A DNA stretch of 64,000 bases, from positions 496,001 through 560,000 of the forward strand of contig NZ_QGLL01000006.1 in NCBI RefSeq assembly GCF_003202695.1, in the 5' to 3' direction. Below the pieces are notes generated by a model. The model ran no database searches. It worked only from the letters and a program-made list of their open reading frames with translations, and was not told where the DNA came from. Made by a program: the position numbers and the translations under genes. Positions 15,833 through 25,656 of this stretch are shown piece after piece. The DNA comes from Bifidobacterium asteroides (lineage in GTDB: Bacteria; Actinomycetota; Actinomycetes; Actinomycetales; Bifidobacteriaceae). Position 1 is the stretch's first letter, and each line of letters begins with the position of its first letter.

Positions 15833-16249
15833 AGCGGTGATTCTGCTGCTCCGCCATTCCAGCTACACCCAGTTTCCGCGCCATCTCGAAGCGCGTGCCG
15901 CCGAGTGACGCGACGACACGCTTCGTCGTCTTAGTGGACAAAAACTAGGACAGTTTCGAAACTCTTGTCAAGCGCAGGGCCTTAAGTTTTAGCTTTTGGA
16001 CCAAAAAGTATAGAAGATGGTCTTTCATAGCTAGAAAACACTGAAAACGCCTGTTTCGAAACTCAAACGCCATTTTGCGCGCAAGCCGGCAGCTGCGCCT
16101 GCAAGTGAGTAAATGCGAGTGGCTTGTGAGCGATTCAAAAACCGTAGGTCACGGCTCTTCGTCATCGGTGTCCGAAGTGAGTAGTCTTGGTTGACTTGCC
16201 CATAAGTTGACGCTTTGGACAAAAGCCAGCCAACTCAACGACTCCCGTA
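15833..16249. other. Island left end without a convincing gene
   Basis: Several short frames exist but none has family features. The stretch carries a 12-bp direct repeat, GTTTCGAAACTC, at 15953-15964 and again at 16053-16064, exactly 100 bp apart and each containing the palindrome GTTTCGAAAC. It also has a small hairpin (GACGAC/GTCGTC, 15912-15930). The repeats could be protein-binding sites of the mobile element. Confidence 0.5.
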
Positions 16250-16684
16250 TCATAGAAACCACTTGGAACAGAGGCCGATCTGAAACACCGAATAGACGAG
16301 TATCAAGATTCCGAAGCAGACCATCATCACACAAAGCCCGATTCCGGCCCATTTTATAAAAGAGTCTTTTCTTTGCTTGTCGGAATTAAACTCCAGCCGG
16401 TCGGGAGAATATGTCTTGCCGTACTCATCGGCCCTTGAGGCCTCTTTCGAAAGCAGCTCGAAGGCTTCGTCGAGATCTTCGGCGAGCCTGTCCACATCGA
16501 ACCTAACTTTGAAAAGATGCGTCTCGTCATGCTACTTGAGCGCCGATTTGTCCTGCAACAAATAGAACCTCTCGCCGTTCACTTCGTTTGCCAGAGCGGT
16601 CCTCTCGAGCAGCTGATGCCCACTCGTCCGCCCCACCTTGCGCAGACAGCCCTCCCGCAATGTCCATGTCTCAACGGATGGGTA
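16250..16684 (-). pseudogene. Interrupted small membrane-protein gene
   Basis: One minus-strand frame stays open from 16684 to 16250 except for a single TAG at 16532-16534. Both sides read like protein: upstream LANEVNGERFYLLQDKSALK, downstream HDETHLFKVRFDVDRLAEDL. The frame ends in one hydrophobic helix (WAGIGLCVMMVCFGILILVY) near the C-terminus. The downstream part alone could start at a GTG at 16495 (81 residues) but has no ribosome site. I do not recognise the family. A nonsense-mutated gene of the island is the simplest reading. Confidence 0.5.
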
Positions 16685-17101
16685 CTACTTGTCTGGATGC
16701 GCCTGGGGCAACATGCCAAAAGCACGCAAGGTCGCGCGCAGAACACGCAGCAGCAAATACTACAGAAAAGGCGCACGACAGATGCTGGACTTCGGACAAC
16801 AGCACTGCGGAAGACGAGCATTCTGACCACGACCGAACAACTCTGGCTACTAGACAGGCGCCCATATGGGGCGCCTTTCACTTCTCAGAGACTTAGCTGC
16901 CAGCTAAGGTATGCAGCCCATGGCTGTTTCGCGAAGGCCCGACCAGCTCGTCTTACCGCGATCCTTCTCCGCTCACGCCCGGTGCGCCGTACGCATCAAG
17001 CGGTTCAATCGTCGCGCAGACGAAAAAGCACACGGTGCCGTGGGGTGTGCTCGCGCGGTGCTGCGCAACACGTGCATTGAAAGAAAGAAGGAGGCGAACC
17101 G
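16685..17101. other. Island stretch with no supported gene
   Basis: A GC-rich hairpin, GGCGCCC/GGGCGCC followed by TTT (16857-16878), could be a plus-strand terminator. A preceding basic frame ends at 16826 but shows no family features. AAGGAGG at its right end serves the small ORF at 17102. Confidence 0.4.
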
Positions 17102-17239
17102 ATGTTGGACTATGAAGAGAAGATAAAGCGTCGTGAGCTGCCTGCCACGATGGCAGATGCTGAAAGGCTGGCGAGGGGCCTGGACCAGCTGCTCGAGTCC
17201 ATGGCGCCGGCCGATCAGCCGGTCTCGCTCGACACCTAG
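17102..17239 (+). CDS. Small hypothetical protein (45 residues), possibly frameshifted
   Basis: MLDYEEKIKRRELPATMADA opens a charged, helix-forming 45-residue ORF with a strong ribosome site (AAGGAGG eight bases upstream). Directly after its stop, a different frame continues with similar composition (PDVDKREAHRAYLGATRILE, then AQNEFYAEEQATP). This suggests that a one-base shift cut an originally longer protein. It lies upstream of the RHH/methyltransferase operon in the island. No family recognised. Confidence 0.5.
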   Translation: MLDYEEKIKRRELPATMADAERLARGLDQLLESMAPADQPVSLDT

Positions 17240-17490
17240 GGGATACTAGCCCTGATGTCGATAAGCGAGAGGCGCATCGAGCGTATCTGGGCGCCACCCG
17301 CATCCTGGAGGCCCAGAACGAGTTTTACGCCGAGGAGCAGGCAACACCAAACCCCTCGAAAACCAGGAACACGGCTCAAGCGGAAACTGCTCTCCGAATC
17401 CAAATGGAAGTTTCCTACGTCTGGTACGTTAGCATGAGGCCTGGACATCGACTGTCCCTCTATTCCCAGTGCCACGCTGTACCGCTGCGT

Positions 17491-17522
17491 TATAATAATG
17501 AAAATGCATTTGTATTGCATTT
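17491..17522 (+). promoter_or_regulatory. Promoter and inverted-repeat operator of the R-M operon
   Basis: A perfect -10 hexamer TATAAT at 17491-17496 is followed by the inverted repeat AAATGCA-7-TGCATTT (17502-17522), which would cover the transcription start. A clear -35 box is missing. The repeat sits 18 bases before the small RHH-like gene, whose product is the natural candidate to bind it. Confidence 0.6.
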
Positions 17523-17540
17523 CGAGCGACAGGGACACAA

Positions 17541-17753
17541 ATGTCTGACGGTTACAAGGACCTCGTCAAACGTAACCCCGACGAGACTGAGATCAGAAGC
17601 TTCCTGGTTGACGGCGACCAGGTCTCCGTGCCCCTGCACATCCCCGACACCTTGCGTGACGCGGCCAAGCAGGAGGCGGCCCTCCGAGGTATGGGCTTCT
17701 CGGCATTCGTACGCACGTGCATGCTCGAAGAGCTCGCGAAGAAGGGACAGTAA
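17541..17753 (+). CDS. Small ribbon-helix-helix-like regulator
   Basis: 70 residues. The C-terminal half (VSVPLHIPDTLRDAAKQEAA, then LRGMGFSAFVRTCMLEELA) has the strand-helix-helix pattern of CopG/Arc-type DNA-binding proteins. It starts MSDGYKDLVKRNPDETEIRS. Its stop is three bases before the methyltransferase start, so the genes are co-translated. RHH proteins in this position commonly repress their own operon. Here that would limit restriction before methylation is complete. The operator candidate is at 17502-17522. Confidence 0.7.
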   Translation: MSDGYKDLVKRNPDETEIRSFLVDGDQVSVPLHIPDTLRDAAKQEAALRGMGFSAFVRTCMLEELAKKGQ

Positions 17754-17756
17754 CCC

Positions 17757-19844
17757 GTGGCCGAGCCAATCTATGATATGTCGGTCAAAAGCTTCATAGA
17801 GTACTTCTACCGTCGATACCCAACCTTCATTCTTAAAACACTGCTGTGCGATCGCACGACGGGACGCAATATCATATGGGCCGACAACGAATACGAGACT
17901 TTGGGCGAAGGCTACATGGGCGACGACGAGATGACCGTCGAGAAGATCACGGGCATGAACTCCGGCATCATCAAGCCGCGCATCGCCAAGGAAGAAGAGA
18001 AACAGTCCCGGCGCACCAAGAGTCGCGCTGAAGTATTCACTCCATCGTGGTTGTGCAACGAGATGAACAACGACCTGGACGAGGCATGGTTCGGCCGACG
18101 CGACGTTTTCAACACTGAGATCATTGCAGACGATGGCGCCAATACATGGACGGCCGCTAATGAGCCAATTGAATTCCCCAAGTCGAAAGGGCACGGTTGG
18201 CATGCCTACGTGGAGGCACCGCGGCTCGAGATCACGTGCGGCGAAGCACCATTCGTGTGCTCACGTTACGACACCGTGACGGGCGACGAGCTGCCCGTGC
18301 ACGAGCGCGTGGGCTTCCTAGATCGCAAACTGCGGGTCGTGACCGAGAAGACCAAAACTCGCGAGGAATGGGTGCGTCGAGCGCTCGACGCGCTGCGGGC
18401 GACTTACGGCTTCGAGTATCAGGGTGACAATCTGCTCATCGCACGCATCAACGTGCTCGAAACGTTTGCCGAGCATTTCCGCGACCGTTGGGGGTCGGAC
18501 GCTGCGCAAGACGAACTTGAGCAAGCCGCGTGGATCGTTTCCTGGAACTTCTGGCAGATGAACGGCTTCACCGATGCCGTACCCACCAATAAGATGGGCG
18601 CTGTGACAAAGTCGACCCTGGGGACATTCGAAACGCCCAAGCCGGAACCAGTACAGTCTTCGCTGTTCGATGACGCGTTTTCCGACGCGGCAAACGAAAA
18701 GGCCAAGAAATATGAGCCAAAGGAGACGGTTCCTCTCTGTGTGATTTATGACTGGCAGAACGGTGAGCCCTTCGAGTTCGCCACATTGAAAGGCAAGGCA
18801 ACGGCCATGAAGAAGAAATTCTATGCGGTGATCGGCAACCCTCCGTATCAGGAGACCGTAGAAGGAAGCACGCGAGCAAGACCTGTTTACAATTATTTTA
18901 TGGATGCTTCTTATGGTGTAGCTGAGAAAACCGTACTTATTACCCCTGCGAGATTTCTGTTCGATTCTGGTTTGACGCCTAAAGCATTCAATCAACGAAT
19001 GCTGGAAGACGAGCACCTTAAAATTGCTAAGTACTATCCCGACGGTGCGGAGGTATTCCCTAACACCGATATCAAGGGTGGAGTTGTTATCACCTATCAC
19101 GACGAAAAGAAAACATTCAAGCCTATTCGAAGGATGTACAAAGACGAGCGTCACCGTTCCCTCGTCGAAAAGGCGCTCAAGGCTAGTGATTTTCAGCCTC
19201 TATCGACTATTGTTGGAAGCCAGGGCACTTTCAAATACACAGATGCTTTTTTTAAAGACAACCCTGCTGCGCGTAAGGTTCTGACCAAAGGTACTAAAGA
19301 TAAAATTCTATCTGCACACTTTAGCGACAGCGATTTTGCTCGCTCGTTCATGGATGTTGAGACTGATGGTTACGTAAAAGTGCTCGCCCGTGTTGAAGGA
19401 CGGCGTGTGTATCGCTGGATTCGAAGTGATTACATTGTTGAAAATGGCAACGATACACTTGCGTTTTACAAAGTTTTTGTTGCCGAGGCTCAGGGTTCTG
19501 GAGCATATGGTGAAGCTTTGAGTGATACCGTTATTGGAGAGCCCGGGACAGCGCAAACGGATACGTTTCTGGCCTTTGGCAAATTCGACAATGTTGATGA
19601 GGCACATAATCTTTCGAAATACCTTAAAACCAAGTATGCGCGTGCACTGCTAGGGGCGCTTAAGGTTACTCAGCACGCTGCCTCTGCGGTTTGGGCCTAC
19701 GTCCCTCTCCAGAACTTCACTTCCGCTTCCGACATCGATTGGTCGAAGCCCGTAGCCGACATCGATCACCAGCTCTATAAAAAGTATGGCCTTAATAATG
19801 ACGAAATCGAGTTCATCGAATCCAACGTGAAGGAGATGAATTAA
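17757..19844 (+). CDS. N6-adenine DNA methyltransferase (Eco57I-like) of an R-M-like system
   Basis: 695 residues, GTG start. Motif X is AEVFTPSWLCNEM near residue 93. A divergent SAM-binding motif I (LEITCGEAPFV) lies near 157, followed by VGFLDRKLRVVTE. The amino-methyltransferase motif IV is GNPPYQE near residue 360. NPPY marks adenine-N6 methylation. The C-terminal half is the expected target-recognition region, and bases 18880-19660 are clearly richer in A/T and in U-ending codons than the rest of the gene. This suggests an exchanged specificity module. It sits between the RHH-like gene and the GIY-YIG helicase protein, with no hsdS. It likely protects host DNA from its partner. The recognition sequence is unknown. 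Confidence 0.85.
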   Translation: MAEPIYDMSVKSFIEYFYRRYPTFILKTLLCDRTTGRNIIWADNEYETLGEGYMGDDEMTVEKITGMNSGIIKPRIAKEEEKQSRRTKSRAEVFTPSWLCNEMNNDLDEAWFGRRDVFNTEIIADDGANTWTAANEPIEFPKSKGHGWHAYVEAPRLEITCGEAPFVCSRYDTVTGDELPVHERVGFLDRKLRVVTEKTKTREEWVRRALDALRATYGFEYQGDNLLIARINVLETFAEHFRDRWGSDAAQDELEQAAWIVSWNFWQMNGFTDAVPTNKMGAVTKSTLGTFETPKPEPVQSSLFDDAFSDAANEKAKKYEPKETVPLCVIYDWQNGEPFEFATLKGKATAMKKKFYAVIGNPPYQETVEGSTRARPVYNYFMDASYGVAEKTVLITPARFLFDSGLTPKAFNQRMLEDEHLKIAKYYPDGAEVFPNTDIKGGVVITYHDEKKTFKPIRRMYKDERHRSLVEKALKASDFQPLSTIVGSQGTFKYTDAFFKDNPAARKVLTKGTKDKILSAHFSDSDFARSFMDVETDGYVKVLARVEGRRVYRWIRSDYIVENGNDTLAFYKVFVAEAQGSGAYGEALSDTVIGEPGTAQTDTFLAFGKFDNVDEAHNLSKYLKTKYARALLGALKVTQHAASAVWAYVPLQNFTSASDIDWSKPVADIDHQLYKKYGLNNDEIEFIESNVKEMN

Positions 19845-19846
19845 TC

Positions 19847-22800
19847 ATGACGGTCATCGACATCTCCCAGATAATTGCGACCACCGCGCCTGCGGTGCCG
19901 CAGATTTACGCTTATACCACGCCCGAGATCGCCCGCCATAACGGCTGGACAAAGATCGGCTACACCGAGCAGGACGTGCGCGAACGCATCAAGCAGCAGA
20001 CGCACACCGCCGACGTGCGGTGGCACCTGGAGTGGAGCGGCAACGCCACGTGGGAGCACCGCGCAGGCACGTTCCACGACACCGACTTCCATGCGTATTT
20101 GGAGAAGCAGGGCGTCGAGCGCGAACAAAAAACGGAATGGTTCAAGATCAGCGGTGAGGAGTCCCACCAGCAGTTCTATCAATTTCGCGACACCGACGGC
20201 GTGCTGGACACACCCGGCTCCGCCTCCTACACCCTGCGCGCCGAGCAGCAGCATGCCGTTGAGCAGACGGGCGCATTCGCCCGCGCCCATTGGGACAAGG
20301 ACGGCGCTCACGGTGGAGAGTTCTTGTGGAACGCCAAGCCGCGCTTCGGCAAGACCCTCACTGCCTACGACCTGTGCCTACGCATCCACGCGCAAAAGGT
20401 GCTCATCGTCACCAACCGTCCCGCCATCGCAAACTCCTGGTACGACGACTACGTGAAGTTCGTGGGCCTGGAGCACGGCTACCGCTTCATTAGCAGCGTG
20501 GACGCCTTGGCAGGCAAGCCCTACTGCCTCAGCCGCGAGGAATACCTGCGCGCTATTCGCAACAACCCGGAGGGCCCCAAGGGGTTCATCGAGTTCGTGA
20601 GCCTTCAGGACCTCAAAGGCTCCATCCGCTTCGGCGGCGTGTATAAAAAACTCAACGAGGTGGCCGATCTCACTTGGGACGTGCTCATCATCGACGAGGC
20701 TCACGAGGGCGTGGACACCTTCAAAACCGACGTGGCGTTCGACCACATCAAGCGCCACTTCACGCTGCACCTCTCCGGTACACCCTTCAAGGCCATCGCC
20801 AACGAAAAGTTCGCCGATGATGCCATCTATAACTGGACCTATGCCGATGAACAGCAGGCCAAGGGCGACTGGCCCGCCGACTCCGAGCAGCCGAACCCCT
20901 ACGCCGACCTCCCCAAGCTCAACCTGCTCACCTACCAGATGAGCGACATCGTTGAGCAGGAGGTCCGCGGCGGCATGAAGATCGATGGCGAGCAGACCGA
21001 GTTCGCCTTCGATCTCAACGAGTTCTTTTCGACCAAGCAGAACGGTGACTTTGTACACGAAGATGACGTGGACAAGTTCCTCAACGCGCTCACCACGCAG
21101 GAAAAGTTCCCGTTCTCGACGCCCGAGCTGCGCGACGAGCTGCGCCACACGTTCTGGATACTCAACCGCGTCGACTCCGCCCGCGCCCTCGCAAAGAAAC
21201 TGCAGGAGCACCCCATCTTCGGGGACTACGAGGTGGTGCTCGCAGCCGGTGACGGCAAGATCGACGCCGACGACGAAAACGAGAAGTCGCTCGACAAGGT
21301 GCGCCGCGCGATCAAGGACCACGACAAAACCATCACGCTGTCGGTGGGCCAGCTCACCACCGGCGTCACCGTGCCCGAGTGGACCGCCGTGCTCATGCTC
21401 TCGAACATGACGAGCCCCTCGTTGTACATGCAGGCGGCCTTCCGCTGCCAGAACCCGTGCCTGTTCGACCTAGGCGGAGGCAACTACGCACGCAAGGAGA
21501 ACTCCTACGTCTTCGACTTCGACCCCGCACGCACGCTCACCATCTTCGAGCAGTTCGCCAACGACCTGTACGGAGAAACCGCGCAAGGTGGCGGCGACGC
21601 GAAGACGCGCGAGCGCCACATCCGCCAGCTGCTGAACTTCTTCCCCGTCTACGGCGAGGACGACGATGGGCAGATGGTCGAGCTCGACGCCGAGCAGGTG
21701 CTCAGTGTGCCGAGGCGCATCCACGCCCGCGAGGTAGTCAAGCGCGGCTTCATGAGCAACTTTCTGTTCCAGAACATCGCGAGCGTCTTCCATGCGCCAG
21801 CAGAGGTCGTGGAGATCATCCAGCGCTTCGATCCCTACGAGCAGGGCAAGGCGCAGAACGCCGAGAAGGCCAAAGTCAAGATCGACGAGGGTACAGCCGA
21901 CGAGCTCTCGATCAACGACGAGGGCGAGGTGGAGATTCCCGACGAGCAGGTCGTTGGCAAGGCGGCGGACATCTTCGGGCCGAAGGTCTATGGCGACATC
22001 ACCGTCGAATTCTCCAGCCACGTGGACGGCATCGCGAAGGCTCACGAGGCCGATGACGATGACAGGGCGATGCTCGACAACCTCAAGAAAGCCTTCAAGA
22101 AGAGCGTAACCGAGCCCTTGGTGCAGGCCGGCAAGGAGAGCTACGGCAGCGAACTCAAGCCTCGCCAGCAGCAGCAGATCGAGCGAAAGGTTCAGGCAGA
22201 TGCCGACATCCAGCTCAACCGCCAAGTAGGCGATTATCAGATCCAGGCGCGCCGCATCAAGCAGTTGCGCAAAGACGAGCTCAAGGCGGCAACCAACGCA
22301 GCCGAGCGCGCTGAGGTGAACCAACGGTACGACGAGCAGAAGGCCGAGACGTTCCAAGCGCTCGCCCAGAAGCTCGAGGACACCCGTAAAGAGCTCGTGC
22401 AGAGCGCCGGCGAGACCGTGGTGCGCGAGATAGAGACAGCCAAGAAGGAGGACGAGAAGCAGGGCATCGAGGACAAGGTGCGCGCCCATCTGCGCGGCTT
22501 CTCGCGTACTATCCCGTCGTTCCTCATGGCGTACGGCGAAGAGGGCACGACGCTCGCGAACTTCGACACCGTGATCCCCGCCGACATTTTCCGCGACGTA
22601 ACGAGCATCACTGTGGACGAGTTCCGCTTCCTGCGCGACGGCGGCGACTACACCGACGCCGAGACCGGCGAGACGAAACATTTCGTCGGGCACATCTTCA
22701 ACGAGGTAGTGTTCAACGACTCCGTGTGCGAGTTCATCAAGCTACGCGAGTGCCTGGCCAACTACTTCGACGAGTCCCAGACAGAGGACATCTTCGACTA

Positions 22801-23224
22801 CGTGCCGCCCCAGAAGACCAACCAGATCTTCACGCCGCGCAACGTCGTAGTTGAGATGGTGGACCTTTTCGAGAAGGAGAACCCGGGCTGCTTCGACGAT
22901 CCGAACCACACCTTCGCCGACCTGTACATGAAGTCTGGCCTGTACATCACTGAGATCATCAAGCGGCTGTATCGAAGCGACGGCATGAAGGCCGCCTTCC
23001 CAGATGACCGCGAGCGACTGGACCATATCCTGGAGCGCCAGGTGTTCGGTATCGCGCCCACCAAGATCATATACGAGATCGCCACGCACTTCATCCTGGG
23101 CTTCCACGACGAAGTCGGCCATGGATGCGACTCGAACTTCGAACTCGCGGACTCCGCGGAGCTTGCCAAGGAGGGCACGCTGGATGCTTACGTTGAACGC
23201 GTTTTCGGGCCCAAGCTAAGTTAG
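19847..23224 (+). CDS. GIY-YIG (T5orf172-like) nuclease / DEAH helicase with methyltransferase-like C-terminus
   Basis: 1125 residues, starting two bases after the methyltransferase stop, with AAGGAG upstream. Residues 17-103 fit a T5orf172/Mug113-type GIY-YIG fold: IYAYTTPE, TKIGYT, and a distal H-and-EWF pattern. An SF2 motor follows: Walker A AKPRFGKT near 162, IIDEAHEG near 280, LSGTPFK near 307, QLTTGVTVPEW near 500. Residues 700-900 are charged and probably coiled. The last 140 residues look like a DNA methyltransferase start without a catalytic site: QIFTPRNVVVEMVD near 992, then DLYMKSGLYITE near 1022, with no NPPY. It is probably the ATP-driven restriction subunit. Confidence 0.82.
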   Translation: MTVIDISQIIATTAPAVPQIYAYTTPEIARHNGWTKIGYTEQDVRERIKQQTHTADVRWHLEWSGNATWEHRAGTFHDTDFHAYLEKQGVEREQKTEWFKISGEESHQQFYQFRDTDGVLDTPGSASYTLRAEQQHAVEQTGAFARAHWDKDGAHGGEFLWNAKPRFGKTLTAYDLCLRIHAQKVLIVTNRPAIANSWYDDYVKFVGLEHGYRFISSVDALAGKPYCLSREEYLRAIRNNPEGPKGFIEFVSLQDLKGSIRFGGVYKKLNEVADLTWDVLIIDEAHEGVDTFKTDVAFDHIKRHFTLHLSGTPFKAIANEKFADDAIYNWTYADEQQAKGDWPADSEQPNPYADLPKLNLLTYQMSDIVEQEVRGGMKIDGEQTEFAFDLNEFFSTKQNGDFVHEDDVDKFLNALTTQEKFPFSTPELRDELRHTFWILNRVDSARALAKKLQEHPIFGDYEVVLAAGDGKIDADDENEKSLDKVRRAIKDHDKTITLSVGQLTTGVTVPEWTAVLMLSNMTSPSLYMQAAFRCQNPCLFDLGGGNYARKENSYVFDFDPARTLTIFEQFANDLYGETAQGGGDAKTRERHIRQLLNFFPVYGEDDDGQMVELDAEQVLSVPRRIHAREVVKRGFMSNFLFQNIASVFHAPAEVVEIIQRFDPYEQGKAQNAEKAKVKIDEGTADELSINDEGEVEIPDEQVVGKAADIFGPKVYGDITVEFSSHVDGIAKAHEADDDDRAMLDNLKKAFKKSVTEPLVQAGKESYGSELKPRQQQQIERKVQADADIQLNRQVGDYQIQARRIKQLRKDELKAATNAAERAEVNQRYDEQKAETFQALAQKLEDTRKELVQSAGETVVREIETAKKEDEKQGIEDKVRAHLRGFSRTIPSFLMAYGEEGTTLANFDTVIPADIFRDVTSITVDEFRFLRDGGDYTDAETGETKHFVGHIFNEVVFNDSVCEFIKLRECLANYFDESQTEDIFDYVPPQKTNQIFTPRNVVVEMVDLFEKENPGCFDDPNHTFADLYMKSGLYITEIIKRLYRSDGMKAAFPDDRERLDHILERQVFGIAPTKIIYEIATHFILGFHDEVGHGCDSNFELADSAELAKEGTLDAYVERVFGPKLS

Positions 23225-23601
23225 GCGTAAAACGCCATGGCACATGCACTCGACAGCCTGCAGGACGGGCGTGCGGAGGCAGCGTACAGCGGCGATTTAT
23301 ACGGCGTCACTCCACGGCATTCTCCCCTGGATACTCCCGCTTTTCCTGAGTGAGGAGATTCTTTACTCCCCACTAGCCACTTGGAAAAGCACCGAATAGA
23401 CACTGCTGAGAAGTCTACTGAGTTTGTTTTGGGTTTCACAGGTCCCGATACAGCGCCGTTCCGCCCTCGTGAACAAAAACCACGCATCTACTCTCGGGGA
23501 TATAGCTTTACTCACAATCCTCCGTATACTGCCCCGCACTTTATTGTCTTGAGGTACACGGCATAAAGAATGAAATCGCAGGTGAGGGGGAATAAAACGG
23601 C
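23225..23601. other. Island right end, no supported gene
   Basis: Between the helicase stop and the guaA terminator no frame has family features or a good ribosome site. The stretch probably contains element remnants. Confidence 0.45.
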
Positions 23602-23638
23602 AAAGAAAAAGCCTCCGTTCCAACGCAGGAACGAAGGC
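23602..23638 (-). terminator. Terminator downstream of guaA
   Basis: On the minus strand an 11-base stem with one wobble (GCCTTCGTTCC/GGAACGGAGGC) is followed by TTTTTCTTT. It lies within the island's right end, 115 bases beyond the guaA stop, so guaA now appears to use a terminator brought by the island. Confidence 0.8.
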
Positions 23639-23753
23639 CTATTTATCTAGTTTATTCATCGCCGTCGCAGGCGGCTTTGCCGTGATTCACGTATGAAACG
23701 AAACTCAACGGCACTGCGCGGCATTCAAAAGCGCAAGTCAAAGCTCTATCGGT

Positions 23754-25316
23754 CTACTCCCACTCGATGGTTGCCGGAGGCTTGGAGGTGCAGTCCAGGA
23801 CCACGCGGTTGATGCCCGGGCACTCGTTGGTAATGCGTGTGGAAATAGTGGCCAGCACGTCGTAGGGCAGACGCGTCCAGTCAGCAGTCATGGCGTCCTC
23901 GGAAGAGACCGGACGCAGCACGATCGGCGAGCCATAGGTGCGCTCGTCGCCCTGCACACCTACCGAATGCACATTGGCCAGCAGCACCACCGGGCACTGC
24001 CAGATCTGCCGATCCAACCCAGCCTTGGACAGCTCTTCGCGGGCAATGGCGTCCGCCTCGCGCAAGGTCTCCAAGCGTTCACGGGTGATCTCGCCAATGA
24101 TGCGAATACCCAGACCAGGGCCCGGGAAGGGCTGACGCCAGACGATCTGGTCAGGCAGGCCCAATTCGGTGCCGATAGCCCGGACCTCATCCTTGAAGAG
24201 GGTGCGCAGGGGCTCGATCAGCTTGAACTTGACATCCTTGGGCAGACCGCCCACATTGTGGTGGGACTTGATATTGGCTGCTCCGTCTCCACCGCCCGAC
24301 TCGACCACGTCGGGGTAGAGCGTGCCCTGCACCAGGAACTTTACTTCCTTGCCGGTCTTGCCGGCCTCCTCGATCACCTGCCGCTGGGCTTTTTCAAAAG
24401 TGCGGATAAACTTCTCGCCGATGATCTTACGTTTGCGCTCGGGATCGGAAACACCCTTGAGCGCAGTCAGGAAATCCTGTGAGGCATCCACAGCTATCAG
24501 CTTGATGCCAGTGGCGGCCACGAAATCATGCTTGACCTGCTCGGCCTCCCCTTTACGCAGCAGACCATGATCCACAAAGACGCAGGTCAACTGGTCGCCG
24601 ACGGCCCTGTGGACCAGGGCAGCTGCCACTGCTGAGTCGACGCCGCCCGACAGGCCGCAGATGACCTGGTCGTCACCCACCGTGCGACGGATCTTCTCCA
24701 CCTGTTGCTCGATGATGCCTGAGGCATTCCAATCCGACGGCAGTCCAGCGCACTGATGCAGGAAGCGATCGATCAGGTCCTGCCCCAGAGGGGTATTGGT
24801 CACCTCGGGATGCCACTGGACCCCGTACAGCCCCCGGGAAGGATCCTGCATGGCCGCAACTGGAGCACCTTCGGTATGCGCCAGAACCTCAAAGCCTTCG
24901 GGCGCGCGGTTGACGGCGACGCCATGGCTCATCCACACATCCTGCCGGGCGGGCGAATCCTGCAGTATTCCTTTGGCGCTGTCGATGAAGGCCTTGGTCT
25001 TGCCGTACTCCCCCAAGGCCGCCTTGTCCACCTCGCCGCCAAGCTCATGGGCCATGACCTGGAAGCCATAGCAGATGCCCAGCACGGGCACCCCCACTTC
25101 GAAGATCCGCCTGTCAATCGTAGGCGCCCCGTTCACGTATACGGAGGCTGGACCGCCTGAGAGGATTACCGCCTTGGGATCCTTGGCTAGCATCCGGTCC
25201 AGACTCATCGAATGAGGCACCAGCTCGGAATAGACCCCCGCCTCCCTGACTCGACGAGCGATCAGCTGGGCGTACTGCGCACCGAAATCGACCACCAGCA
25301 CGGGACCCTGTGCCAT
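23754..25316 (-). CDS. guaA: GMP synthase (glutamine-hydrolysing)
   Basis: 520 residues from ATG 25316, with AAGGAG upstream; a longer frame to 25487 lacks one. It starts [20 protein letters not shown]. The amidotransferase domain has the nucleophile in VLGICYGFQ and GVQWHPEV. The ATP pyrophosphatase domain has the P-loop [10 protein letters not shown] near residue 235, and the dimerisation tail ends KPPATIEWE. It turns XMP, glutamine and ATP into GMP. The last 13 coding bases are the right repeat of the adjoining island. Integration at this site keeps the protein sequence intact. Confidence 0.97.
23756..23768. repeat. Right attachment-like repeat within guaA 3' end
   Basis: ACTCCCACTCGAT, the second copy of the 13-bp repeat at 15820-15832. 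It encodes the terminal Ile-Glu-Trp-Glu of GuaA on the minus strand. Confidence 0.75.
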
Positions 25317-25656
25317 AAGACTCCTTATATATATAAGTATGCTGTATCTGCCATGAATATCTGTGAACGACGATTCCACGCCTACAGACATGTCCAGTAT
25401 GGTTGTTGTTTTCGACAATGCTACCGTCATTGAGCCCTTATCGGCACCCCCGATAGGCAGTCGTGTCTGCAAAGCAGACAATTCCATCGCATTTTCTCAC
25501 AAGAGCGAACACACACTGCAAGAAAACGTTCAGAAAAGTCGTCTCGTTCACGTACCATGAAGCCATTGGATATGGACTCGACGGATGTCTGAATTGACAC
25601 TGTTCGGGCCCATAACCGAGGTAAATAAACAATCGCACTAAAGTGCAGGAGTACAC
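25317..25656. promoter_or_regulatory. Divergent guaA/xfp regulatory region
   Basis: Contains the perfect 14-bp palindrome CTTATATATATAAG (25324-25337), which overlaps the guaA ribosome site. A tight hairpin TGTCTGC-AAA-GCAGACA lies at 25464-25480. A consensus -35 TTGACA is at 25594-25599 about 60 bases before xfp, without a clear -10 at normal spacing. No coding frame is convincing. Confidence 0.5.

What the first reader, a model, noticed from the sequence alone, without database searches (positions are those of the whole stretch)
17491..23224. Three-gene R-M or defence operon: RHH-like regulator, adenine methyltransferase, GIY-YIG/DEAH helicase with a second methyltransferase-like end
The methyltransferase has NPPY but a divergent SAM motif and no HsdS partner. 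The helicase protein joins a T5orf172-like GIY-YIG domain, an SF2 motor and a C-terminal segment with motif X (QIFTPRNVV) and a motif-I-like DLYMKSGLYI but no NPPY. This is neither a standard type I, II, III nor ISP layout. The two proteins may form one complex in which the helicase's methyltransferase-like end helps bind DNA or SAM. I know of no mechanistic description of this arrangement, though homologues are annotated piecemeal.
Basis: partly seen in the sequence, partly recalled or inferred. Interest (0 to 1): 0.78.

Follow-up and report, generated by a model that had tools for sequence, protein, structure and literature searches.

The report
Re-partitioned DrdVI-like split-methylase restriction operon
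These genes encode a bacterial DNA-restriction system of a known but barely studied family (DrdVI-like split methylases), in a variant where the DNA-marking enzyme has been cut up and re-joined differently, with one left-over half carried on the tail of the DNA-cutting motor protein.

Summary
In detail: an intact operon (17541-23224) encodes a weakly RHH-like protein, a 695-aa adenine methyltransferase (MTase), and a 1125-aa GIY-YIG/SF2 protein ending in an MTase N-half without NPPY. It is not an unknown layout. All modules match DrdVI, a REBASE 'split methylase' type IIG system whose cloned M1+M2 methylate GCAGCC. The window is a re-partitioned variant. Across 112 distinct relatives the same modules recur: A (SAM-binding N-half), E (paralogous N-half), B (NPPY half plus recognition domain), G-M (nuclease-motor), cut as A|E-B|G-M (DrdVI), A|G-M-E-B, A|B|G-M-E, A|G-M-E|B or, here, A-B|G-M-E. 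A keeps every SAM determinant; E has Lys for the first motif I Gly (101/104) and no motif II acid (0/104), but a conserved K-[ST]-G. Hence A+B is most likely the working m6A MTase, and E a SAM-dead half that couples it to an ISP-like motor-nuclease. AlphaFold folds both natural fusions, A-B and E-B, as complete TaqI/LlaGI-like MTases, so two N-halves may compete for one catalytic half; that switch is untested. B is exchanged as a specificity cassette, and the operon moved recently between Bifidobacteriales and Coriobacteriia.

The parts
17469..17533 (+). Likely promoter (-10 TATAAT) followed by an invariant GCATTTGTATTGCATTTCGAG block, a candidate operator for the RHH-like protein
   Evidence: Promoter-like hit 10/12; CGTTATAAT and GCATTTGTATTGCATTTCGAG identical in 7 loci while the flanks vary. 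Operator role inferred.
17541..17753 (+). 70-aa RHH-like (CopG/YlcI-YnfO-like) protein, probable operon regulator
   Evidence: Sub-cutoff profile hits; same position in the closest relatives only, L021-L027 and L057.
17757..18791 (+). Module A (P0002 residues 1-345): SAM-binding N-half, equivalent of M1.DrdVI; motif X AEVFTP, motif I LEITCGEAPF, motif II YGFE
   Evidence: PADLOC MTase_II PDLC03390; homologous to the short M1.DrdVI-type A (hhalign E 1e-53); SAM residues invariant.
18804..19841 (+). Module B (P0002 residues 350-695): catalytic half with NPPY (18837-18848) plus recognition domain; equivalent of the C-half of M2.DrdVI
   Evidence: Pfam Eco57I, PADLOC PDLC03375; A-B model matches CamA, LlaGI, LlaBIII, M.TaqI over their length; B profile hits M2.DrdVI at E 4e-78.
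18852..19691 (+). Exchangeable specificity cassette (P0002 residues ~366-645)
   Evidence: DNA identity of 80-90% to relatives stops at ~18851 and resumes at ~19692; window vs L022: A half 85% identical, residues 456-640 18%.
19898..20161 (+). GIY-YIG (T5orf172) nuclease domain of P0003
   Evidence: Pfam T5orf172 E 4.7e-5, above cut-off; Y21, K36-G38, R47, E97 conserved.
20225..21766 (+). SF2 helicase-like ATPase motor (Walker A KPRFGKT 20336-20356; DEAH 20693-20704)
   Evidence: Pfam ResIII E 1.4e-12; motifs near-invariant.
21767..22636 (+). Linker/coupler region between motor and MTase-like end
   Evidence: Position; helical N-terminus in the E-B model; role inferred from Type ISP.
22637..23209 (+). 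Module E: MTase N-half (motif X QIFTP 22823-22837; pseudo motif I DLYMKSG 22919-22939; motif II FGIAPT) without NPPY; equivalent of the N-half of M2.DrdVI
   Evidence: E profile hits M2.DrdVI at E 3e-32; natural E-B fusions; E-B model folds as a complete MTase; K-[ST]-G conserved, SAM acids absent.

Best explanation
The operon is a DrdVI-like, ATP-dependent restriction-modification system with a split m6A MTase. The MTase core is assembled from module A, which holds SAM, and module B, which carries NPPY and the target-recognition domain; in this variant they are fused in P0002. P0003 carries a GIY-YIG nuclease, an SF2 translocase and module E, a paralogous N-half that has lost its SAM site and serves to couple the MTase/recognition part to the motor. 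Expected action: A-B marks adenine in a short asymmetric site, probably on one strand only. On an unmarked site the assembled complex starts ATP-driven translocation, as in Type ISP, and the GIY-YIG domains cut where two complexes meet. Shown here: modules, natural fusions, conservation, homology to DrdVI. Shown in the literature: M1+M2 of DrdVI and of MaeIV methylate m6A in E. coli. Inferred: which half holds SAM, E as coupler, translocation and cleavage, and all activity of the window copy.
For: All five modules of the window match the three pDrdVI proteins (A 1e-16, E 3e-32, B 4e-78, G 3e-21, M 2e-114). M1-2.DrdVI was cloned in ER2796 and methylates m6A in GCAGCC (PMC6430315). [quoted passage not shown] MaeIV (GCACY) is placed in the same 'split methylase' family (PMC10113651). 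Natural re-partitions of A/B/E/G-M among polypeptides, with A kept wherever the locus is complete enough to tell. Reverse test: 10 of 10 loci fetched with A alone have E-B next to A. SAM determinants kept in A, lost in E. Both natural fusions fold as complete MTases. GIY-YIG and SF2 active sites intact.
Against: No activity data for the window. Contiguous E-B fusions in the canonical MTase order would by themselves suggest that E, not A, pairs with B. K-[ST]-G in E is too conserved for mere decay, so E may have an active job. No complex could be predicted with these tools. Sequence profiles of A-B and E-B found no PDB relative, so the Type ISP comparison is by fold only.
Confidence: 0.68

Rival explanations
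1. Half-swap switch: A and E compete for the same face of the single catalytic half B. A+B is the modification state; E+B, tied to the motor and unable to use SAM, is the restriction/translocation state. SAM or site methylation sets the balance.
For: Both A-B and E-B occur as natural contiguous chains and both are predicted as complete M.TaqI-like folds with one B. E keeps motif X and a conserved K-[ST]-G though it lost the SAM residues. A and E are paralogous (hhalign E 4e-14). Nearly all loci have one B for two N-halves.
Against: AlphaFold models each N-half with B alone and would favour the canonical fold in both cases. Stoichiometry is unknown; a complex with two B copies would remove the competition. 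A few Selenomonadales loci carry a second B (L052, L054, L066).
Confidence: 0.15
2. E-B is the true MTase, with an unusual K-[ST]-G SAM loop, and A is an accessory subunit (specificity, stability or regulation). In the window E in P0003 would complete B in trans.
For: E-B is contiguous in canonical motif order in DrdVI M2 and in many fusions; K-[ST]-G is strongly conserved.
Against: E has no motif II acid in 104/104 and Lys for the first Gly in 101/104, while A has every SAM determinant and is kept in all sufficiently complete loci. The window variant fuses A, not E, to B.
Confidence: 0.12
3. A defence system that uses m6A marking but restricts without DNA cleavage (BREX/Pgl-like), the GIY-YIG domain acting otherwise.
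For: The MTase models also match PglX/BrxX; BREX MTases mark self and restriction appears not to need cleavage (PMC4752239).
Against: No BREX-type partner genes among the three ORFs of the operon; GIY-YIG residues are intact in 84-85 of 85 relatives; the DrdVI homologue is described as a translocase-REase fusion.
Confidence: 0.05

Closest known systems
DrdVI system (M1.DrdVI, M2.DrdVI, DrdVI) of Deinococcus wulumuqiensis plasmid pDrdVI; REBASE type IIG 'split methylase'; also MaeIV
   Same: All modules A, E, B, GIY-YIG and SF2 motor are homologous and clustered; m6A MTase made from two partial MTase pieces; translocase fused to GIY-YIG.
   Different: In DrdVI the cut is A | E-B | G-M (212, 539, 851 aa). 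Here it is A-B | G-M-E: the catalytic half sits on M1 and the N-half of M2 on the motor. The window's site and activity are unknown.
Type ISP (LlaGI, LlaBIII)
   Same: Order nuclease - SF2 motor - coupler - MTase - TRD in the G-M-E-B relatives; both MTase models match LlaGI/LlaBIII (Z 16.5-18.2).
   Different: GIY-YIG instead of Mrr nuclease, several polypeptides, and an extra SAM-binding half A; no sequence-level match found.
OspHL35III-type IIG-like systems (PMC4752239)
   Same: Separate MTase, translocase and GIY-YIG endonuclease components with a single TRD.
   Different: MTase is MmeI-like and whole; nuclease and translocase are separate proteins; no split N-halves are described.
Single-chain gamma m6A MTases: CamA, M.TaqI, M.BseCI
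   Same: Fold of the A-B and E-B units.
   Different: Single-chain MTases without a motor and without a second N-half.

Membership tests
DrdVI-like split-methylase R-M (REBASE type IIG) | M1: partial MTase with SAM motifs X, I, II (module A) | tested here: met
   Module A is of the M1 type by profile (E 1e-53; M1.DrdVI hit); SAM residues present. In the window it is fused to B rather than separate.
DrdVI-like split-methylase R-M (REBASE type IIG) | M2: N-half E contiguous with the NPPY half B in one protein | tested here: not met
   E and B are both present and homologous to M2.DrdVI but sit on different proteins in the window: E on P0003, B on P0002. Hence a variant related to DrdVI, not a member of that exact layout.
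DrdVI-like split-methylase R-M (REBASE type IIG) | SF2 translocase fused to a GIY-YIG REase | tested here: met
   P0003 G and M modules; the same profiles hit DrdVI at 3e-21 and 2e-114.
DrdVI-like split-methylase R-M (REBASE type IIG) | m6A methylation of a short asymmetric site by M1+M2 | not testable with these tools
   Shown for DrdVI and MaeIV in the literature; no methylome for the window genome.
Type ISP | Single polypeptide nuclease-motor-coupler-MTase-TRD | tested here: not met
   Split over P0002 and P0003.
Type ISP | Mrr-family (PD-(D/E)XK) nuclease | tested here: not met
   T5orf172/GIY-YIG domain at the N-terminus instead.
Type ISP | MTase-TRD fold as in LlaGI/LlaBIII | tested here: met
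   A-B: 5ffj_B Z 16.8, rmsd 5.6, 409 aligned; E-B: 5ffj_B Z 18.2, rmsd 9.3, 444 aligned. The fold is shared with other gamma MTases, so it does not single out ISP.
Type I R-M | HsdS specificity subunit | tested here: not met
   No HsdS in the operon; its only genes are P0001-P0003.
Type III R-M | Res with PD-(D/E)XK nuclease and Mod of beta-class motif order | tested here: not met
   MTase has gamma order (X-I-II-IV-TRD) and the nuclease domain is GIY-YIG.

The most novel reading that the evidence does not exclude
The family works by half-exchange: one catalytic/recognition half (B) can be completed by either a SAM-loaded half (A, modification) or a SAM-dead half tied to the motor (E, restriction). 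Methylation and restriction would then be alternative assemblies of one MTase fold, and the gene order is free because only the halves matter.
Probability: 0.15. Interest if true: 0.85.

Novelty: new variant of a known kind. Interest (0 to 1): 0.55.

Why it matters
The family is widespread (Actinomycetota, Bacillota, Bacteroidota, Pseudomonadota, Spirochaetota and others, conjugative plasmids, some phages) and is annotated piecemeal as 'Eco57I methylase', 'N-6 DNA methylase' and 'DEAD/DEAH helicase'. Recognising the A/E/B/G-M rule lets such genes be annotated as one R-M system. It raises a testable question of how two MTase N-halves share one catalytic half. The swappable B cassette and the poly-G tracts mark a source of changing methylation specificity in gut bacteria, relevant to phage defence and to transforming these strains.

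Tried and rejected
PDB sequence searches with P0002, P0003 and the A-B and E-B profiles gave nothing. NCBIfam gave no hit for P0002/P0003. A natural A-E-B single chain was sought as a way to model all three halves together; long open frames at G287 and G288 turned out to be an upstream GC-rich extension and an M-E-B chain, and a scan of 396 genomes of the phylum with A gave no fusion. BanLIII of B. animalis (helicase remnant + 191-aa MTase) was considered as a relative but not tested. Csp12AI M1/M2 are FokI-like and were set aside. Att-like repeats of the guaA 3' end were sought in the window and not found. A literature search for the window's A-B|G-M-E layout found no description in the held library; subscription papers and REBASE itself could not be searched.
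Full report
WHAT IS THERE. The window lies in a Bifidobacterium-like genome (G000; nearest named relatives of its flanks and family are Bifidobacteriaceae). Three co-directional ORFs, 17541-17753, 17757-19844 and 19847-23224, are separated by 3 bp and 2 bp. P0002 matches Pfam Eco57I over residues 341-434, and two separate PADLOC 'MTase_II' models match its halves: PDLC03390 over 19-295 and PDLC03375 over 354-694. P0003 matches T5orf172 (20-105) and ResIII (128-314). The first gene has only sub-threshold RHH-type hits.

MODULES. Relatives were gathered by protein search in genomes and viral contigs. Profiles were built for five modules: A (P0002 1-345), B (P0002 350-695), G (GIY-YIG), M (motor) and E (P0003 931-1125). 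The same modules recur in different cuts (redundant loci included): A-B|G-M-E 35, A|E-B|G-M 22, A|G-M-E-B 16, A|B|G-M-E 11, A|G-M-E|B 6, G-M-E|A-B 2; the rest are truncated, frameshifted or duplicated. Of 112 loci distinct by motor sequence, 96 have A, B, E, G and M by profile. Of the 16 others, most run off the end of a contig or of the stretch held; L082 and L124/L134 look fragmentary. Because A and E profiles cross-hit, the E count may include a few cross-hits; in L103 and L146 E is too diverged for the profile but visible by eye as SKSAEF and SKTGLY. Reverse test: 10 of 10 loci fetched with A alone have E-B beside A. Sampling started from P0003, so the frequencies of the layouts are not population frequencies.

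WHICH HALF HOLDS SAM. A carries motif X (EVFTP), motif I (EITCGEAPF in the window, EPACGSGNF in M1.DrdVI) and motif II. Over 99 A sequences the motif I acid and first Gly are 95/95 (gaps aside) and the motif II acid 99/99. Over 104 E sequences the first Gly is Lys in 101, the next Gly is 104/104, and the motif II position is Ala/Gly/Ser with no acid. In one phage the E motif reads DPACKTG, the canonical DPACGTG with a single G-to-K change. A and E are homologous (hhalign E 4e-14) and the long and short A types are one family (E 1e-53). The simplest history is duplication of an MTase followed by complementary loss: A lost its catalytic half, E lost its SAM site. This history is inference.

STRUCTURE. 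AlphaFold on the natural A-B protein (window P0002, 38 sequences) gave pLDDT 85.3, pTM 0.82. On a natural E-B fusion (L070, residues 833-1412, 23 sequences) it gave pLDDT 84.4, pTM 0.75. Both match m6A MTases over N-half, catalytic half and TRD: CamA (Z 18.4 and 21.6), LlaGI (16.8 and 18.2), LlaBIII (16.5 and 17.7), M.TaqI (13.1 with 327 aligned; 16.3 with 323 aligned) (Foldseek). In M.TaqI numbering both A and E start at about residue 21, i.e. they take the same place beside B. With one B per system in nearly all loci this is a puzzle: it means a swap, or a complex with two B copies, or that one of the two models does not show the working pair. No multimer prediction was available, so this is open.

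CATALYTIC PARTS OF P0003. In 85 aligned relatives GIY-YIG residues Y21, K36-G38, R47 and E97, Walker A KPRFGKT, the D-E-x-[HQ]-E box, SGTP and QAAFRxQN are near-invariant, as is K-S-G in E.

KNOWN RELATIVES. The plasmid search led to pDrdVI of Deinococcus wulumuqiensis NEB 479, whose three genes hit the window's A, E, B, G and M profiles. Fomenkov et al. 2019 list M1-2.DrdVI, GCAGCC, 6mA, type IIG, cloned and expressed in ER2796 (PMC6430315). [quoted passage not shown] The window is therefore a re-partitioned relative of DrdVI, not a new kind of system. GCAGCC has adenine on one strand only, so modification is one-stranded there. By analogy with Type ISP, where cleavage needs two head-to-head translocating enzymes (PMC7049714), I infer collision-triggered cleavage.

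SPECIFICITY CASSETTE AND MOBILITY. DNA identity to relatives in Collinsella, Paraeggerthella, Arcanobacterium and Bifidobacterium pseudolongum is about 80-90% over 17456-18851 and 19692-23284 and breaks off in between. At protein level L023 and L022 share 94% of A but 16% of the variable half; L084 and L056 share 42% of A but 65% of the variable half. So the part after NPPY is exchanged as a cassette. Near-identical operons in Bifidobacteriales and Coriobacteriia (P0003 about 92%) indicate recent horizontal transfer. Relatives lie on conjugative Enterococcus plasmids and in phage or viral contigs.

CONFIDENCE. Module anatomy and relation to DrdVI: high. A+B as the MTase with SAM in A: fairly likely. 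E as a coupler, ISP-like translocation and GIY-YIG cleavage: plausible, untested. Activity and recognition site of the window copy: unknown.

Noticed in passing
L033:7192-7275, L096:7189-7270, L112:8000-8075 (-): Poly-G tracts of 7, 9 and 10 lie in the conserved [KR]-G-G region of module B and coincide with a frameshift of the gene: likely phase variation by slippage. The window has AAGGGTGGAG and no tract.
   Followed up: partly
L040:1510-2278, L054:1551-2262, L066:7295-7994, L062:6139-6811, L060:7211-7612, L064:745-1323, L096:4961-6946, L110:8288-9295, L090:6925-7992, L043:3146-3844: Genes resembling toxin-antitoxin or other defence modules (MNT/HEPN-like, AbrB-PIN-like, PIN, RelE-like, DUF262/DUF1524-like, RhuM-like, DUF1016-like, an extra GIY-YIG) sit inside relatives of the operon, between A, B and the helicase gene. 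Names are by eye, not by profile search.
   Followed up: partly
L021:2150-2200, L025, L057: In two Collinsella and one Olsenella genome the A-B gene is frameshifted at the NPPY codons (GGTAATCCCCATATCAG in L021), so A and B fall in different frames; L057 also has a broken helicase gene.
   Followed up: partly
window 23284-25487; L024:8001-17704: The operon lies on the 3' side of guaA in the window and, 4.8 kb away, in Arcanobacterium L024. From memory, guaA 3' ends are island insertion sites; no att-like repeat was found in the window.
   Followed up: partly
L105, L106, L107:3447-4377 and 16024-17857, L134: Fragmented remnants of B, E and motor modules in Bifidobacteriaceae genomes, some beside an intact copy: the system is often lost.
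   Followed up: no
L052, L054, L066: Selenomonadales loci carry a second B module beside the operon, possibly an alternative specificity cassette.
   Followed up: no
G000:C9:318883-319218: A second weak Eco57I-type hit (521-aa frame) elsewhere in the same genome, below the Pfam cut-off.
   Followed up: no
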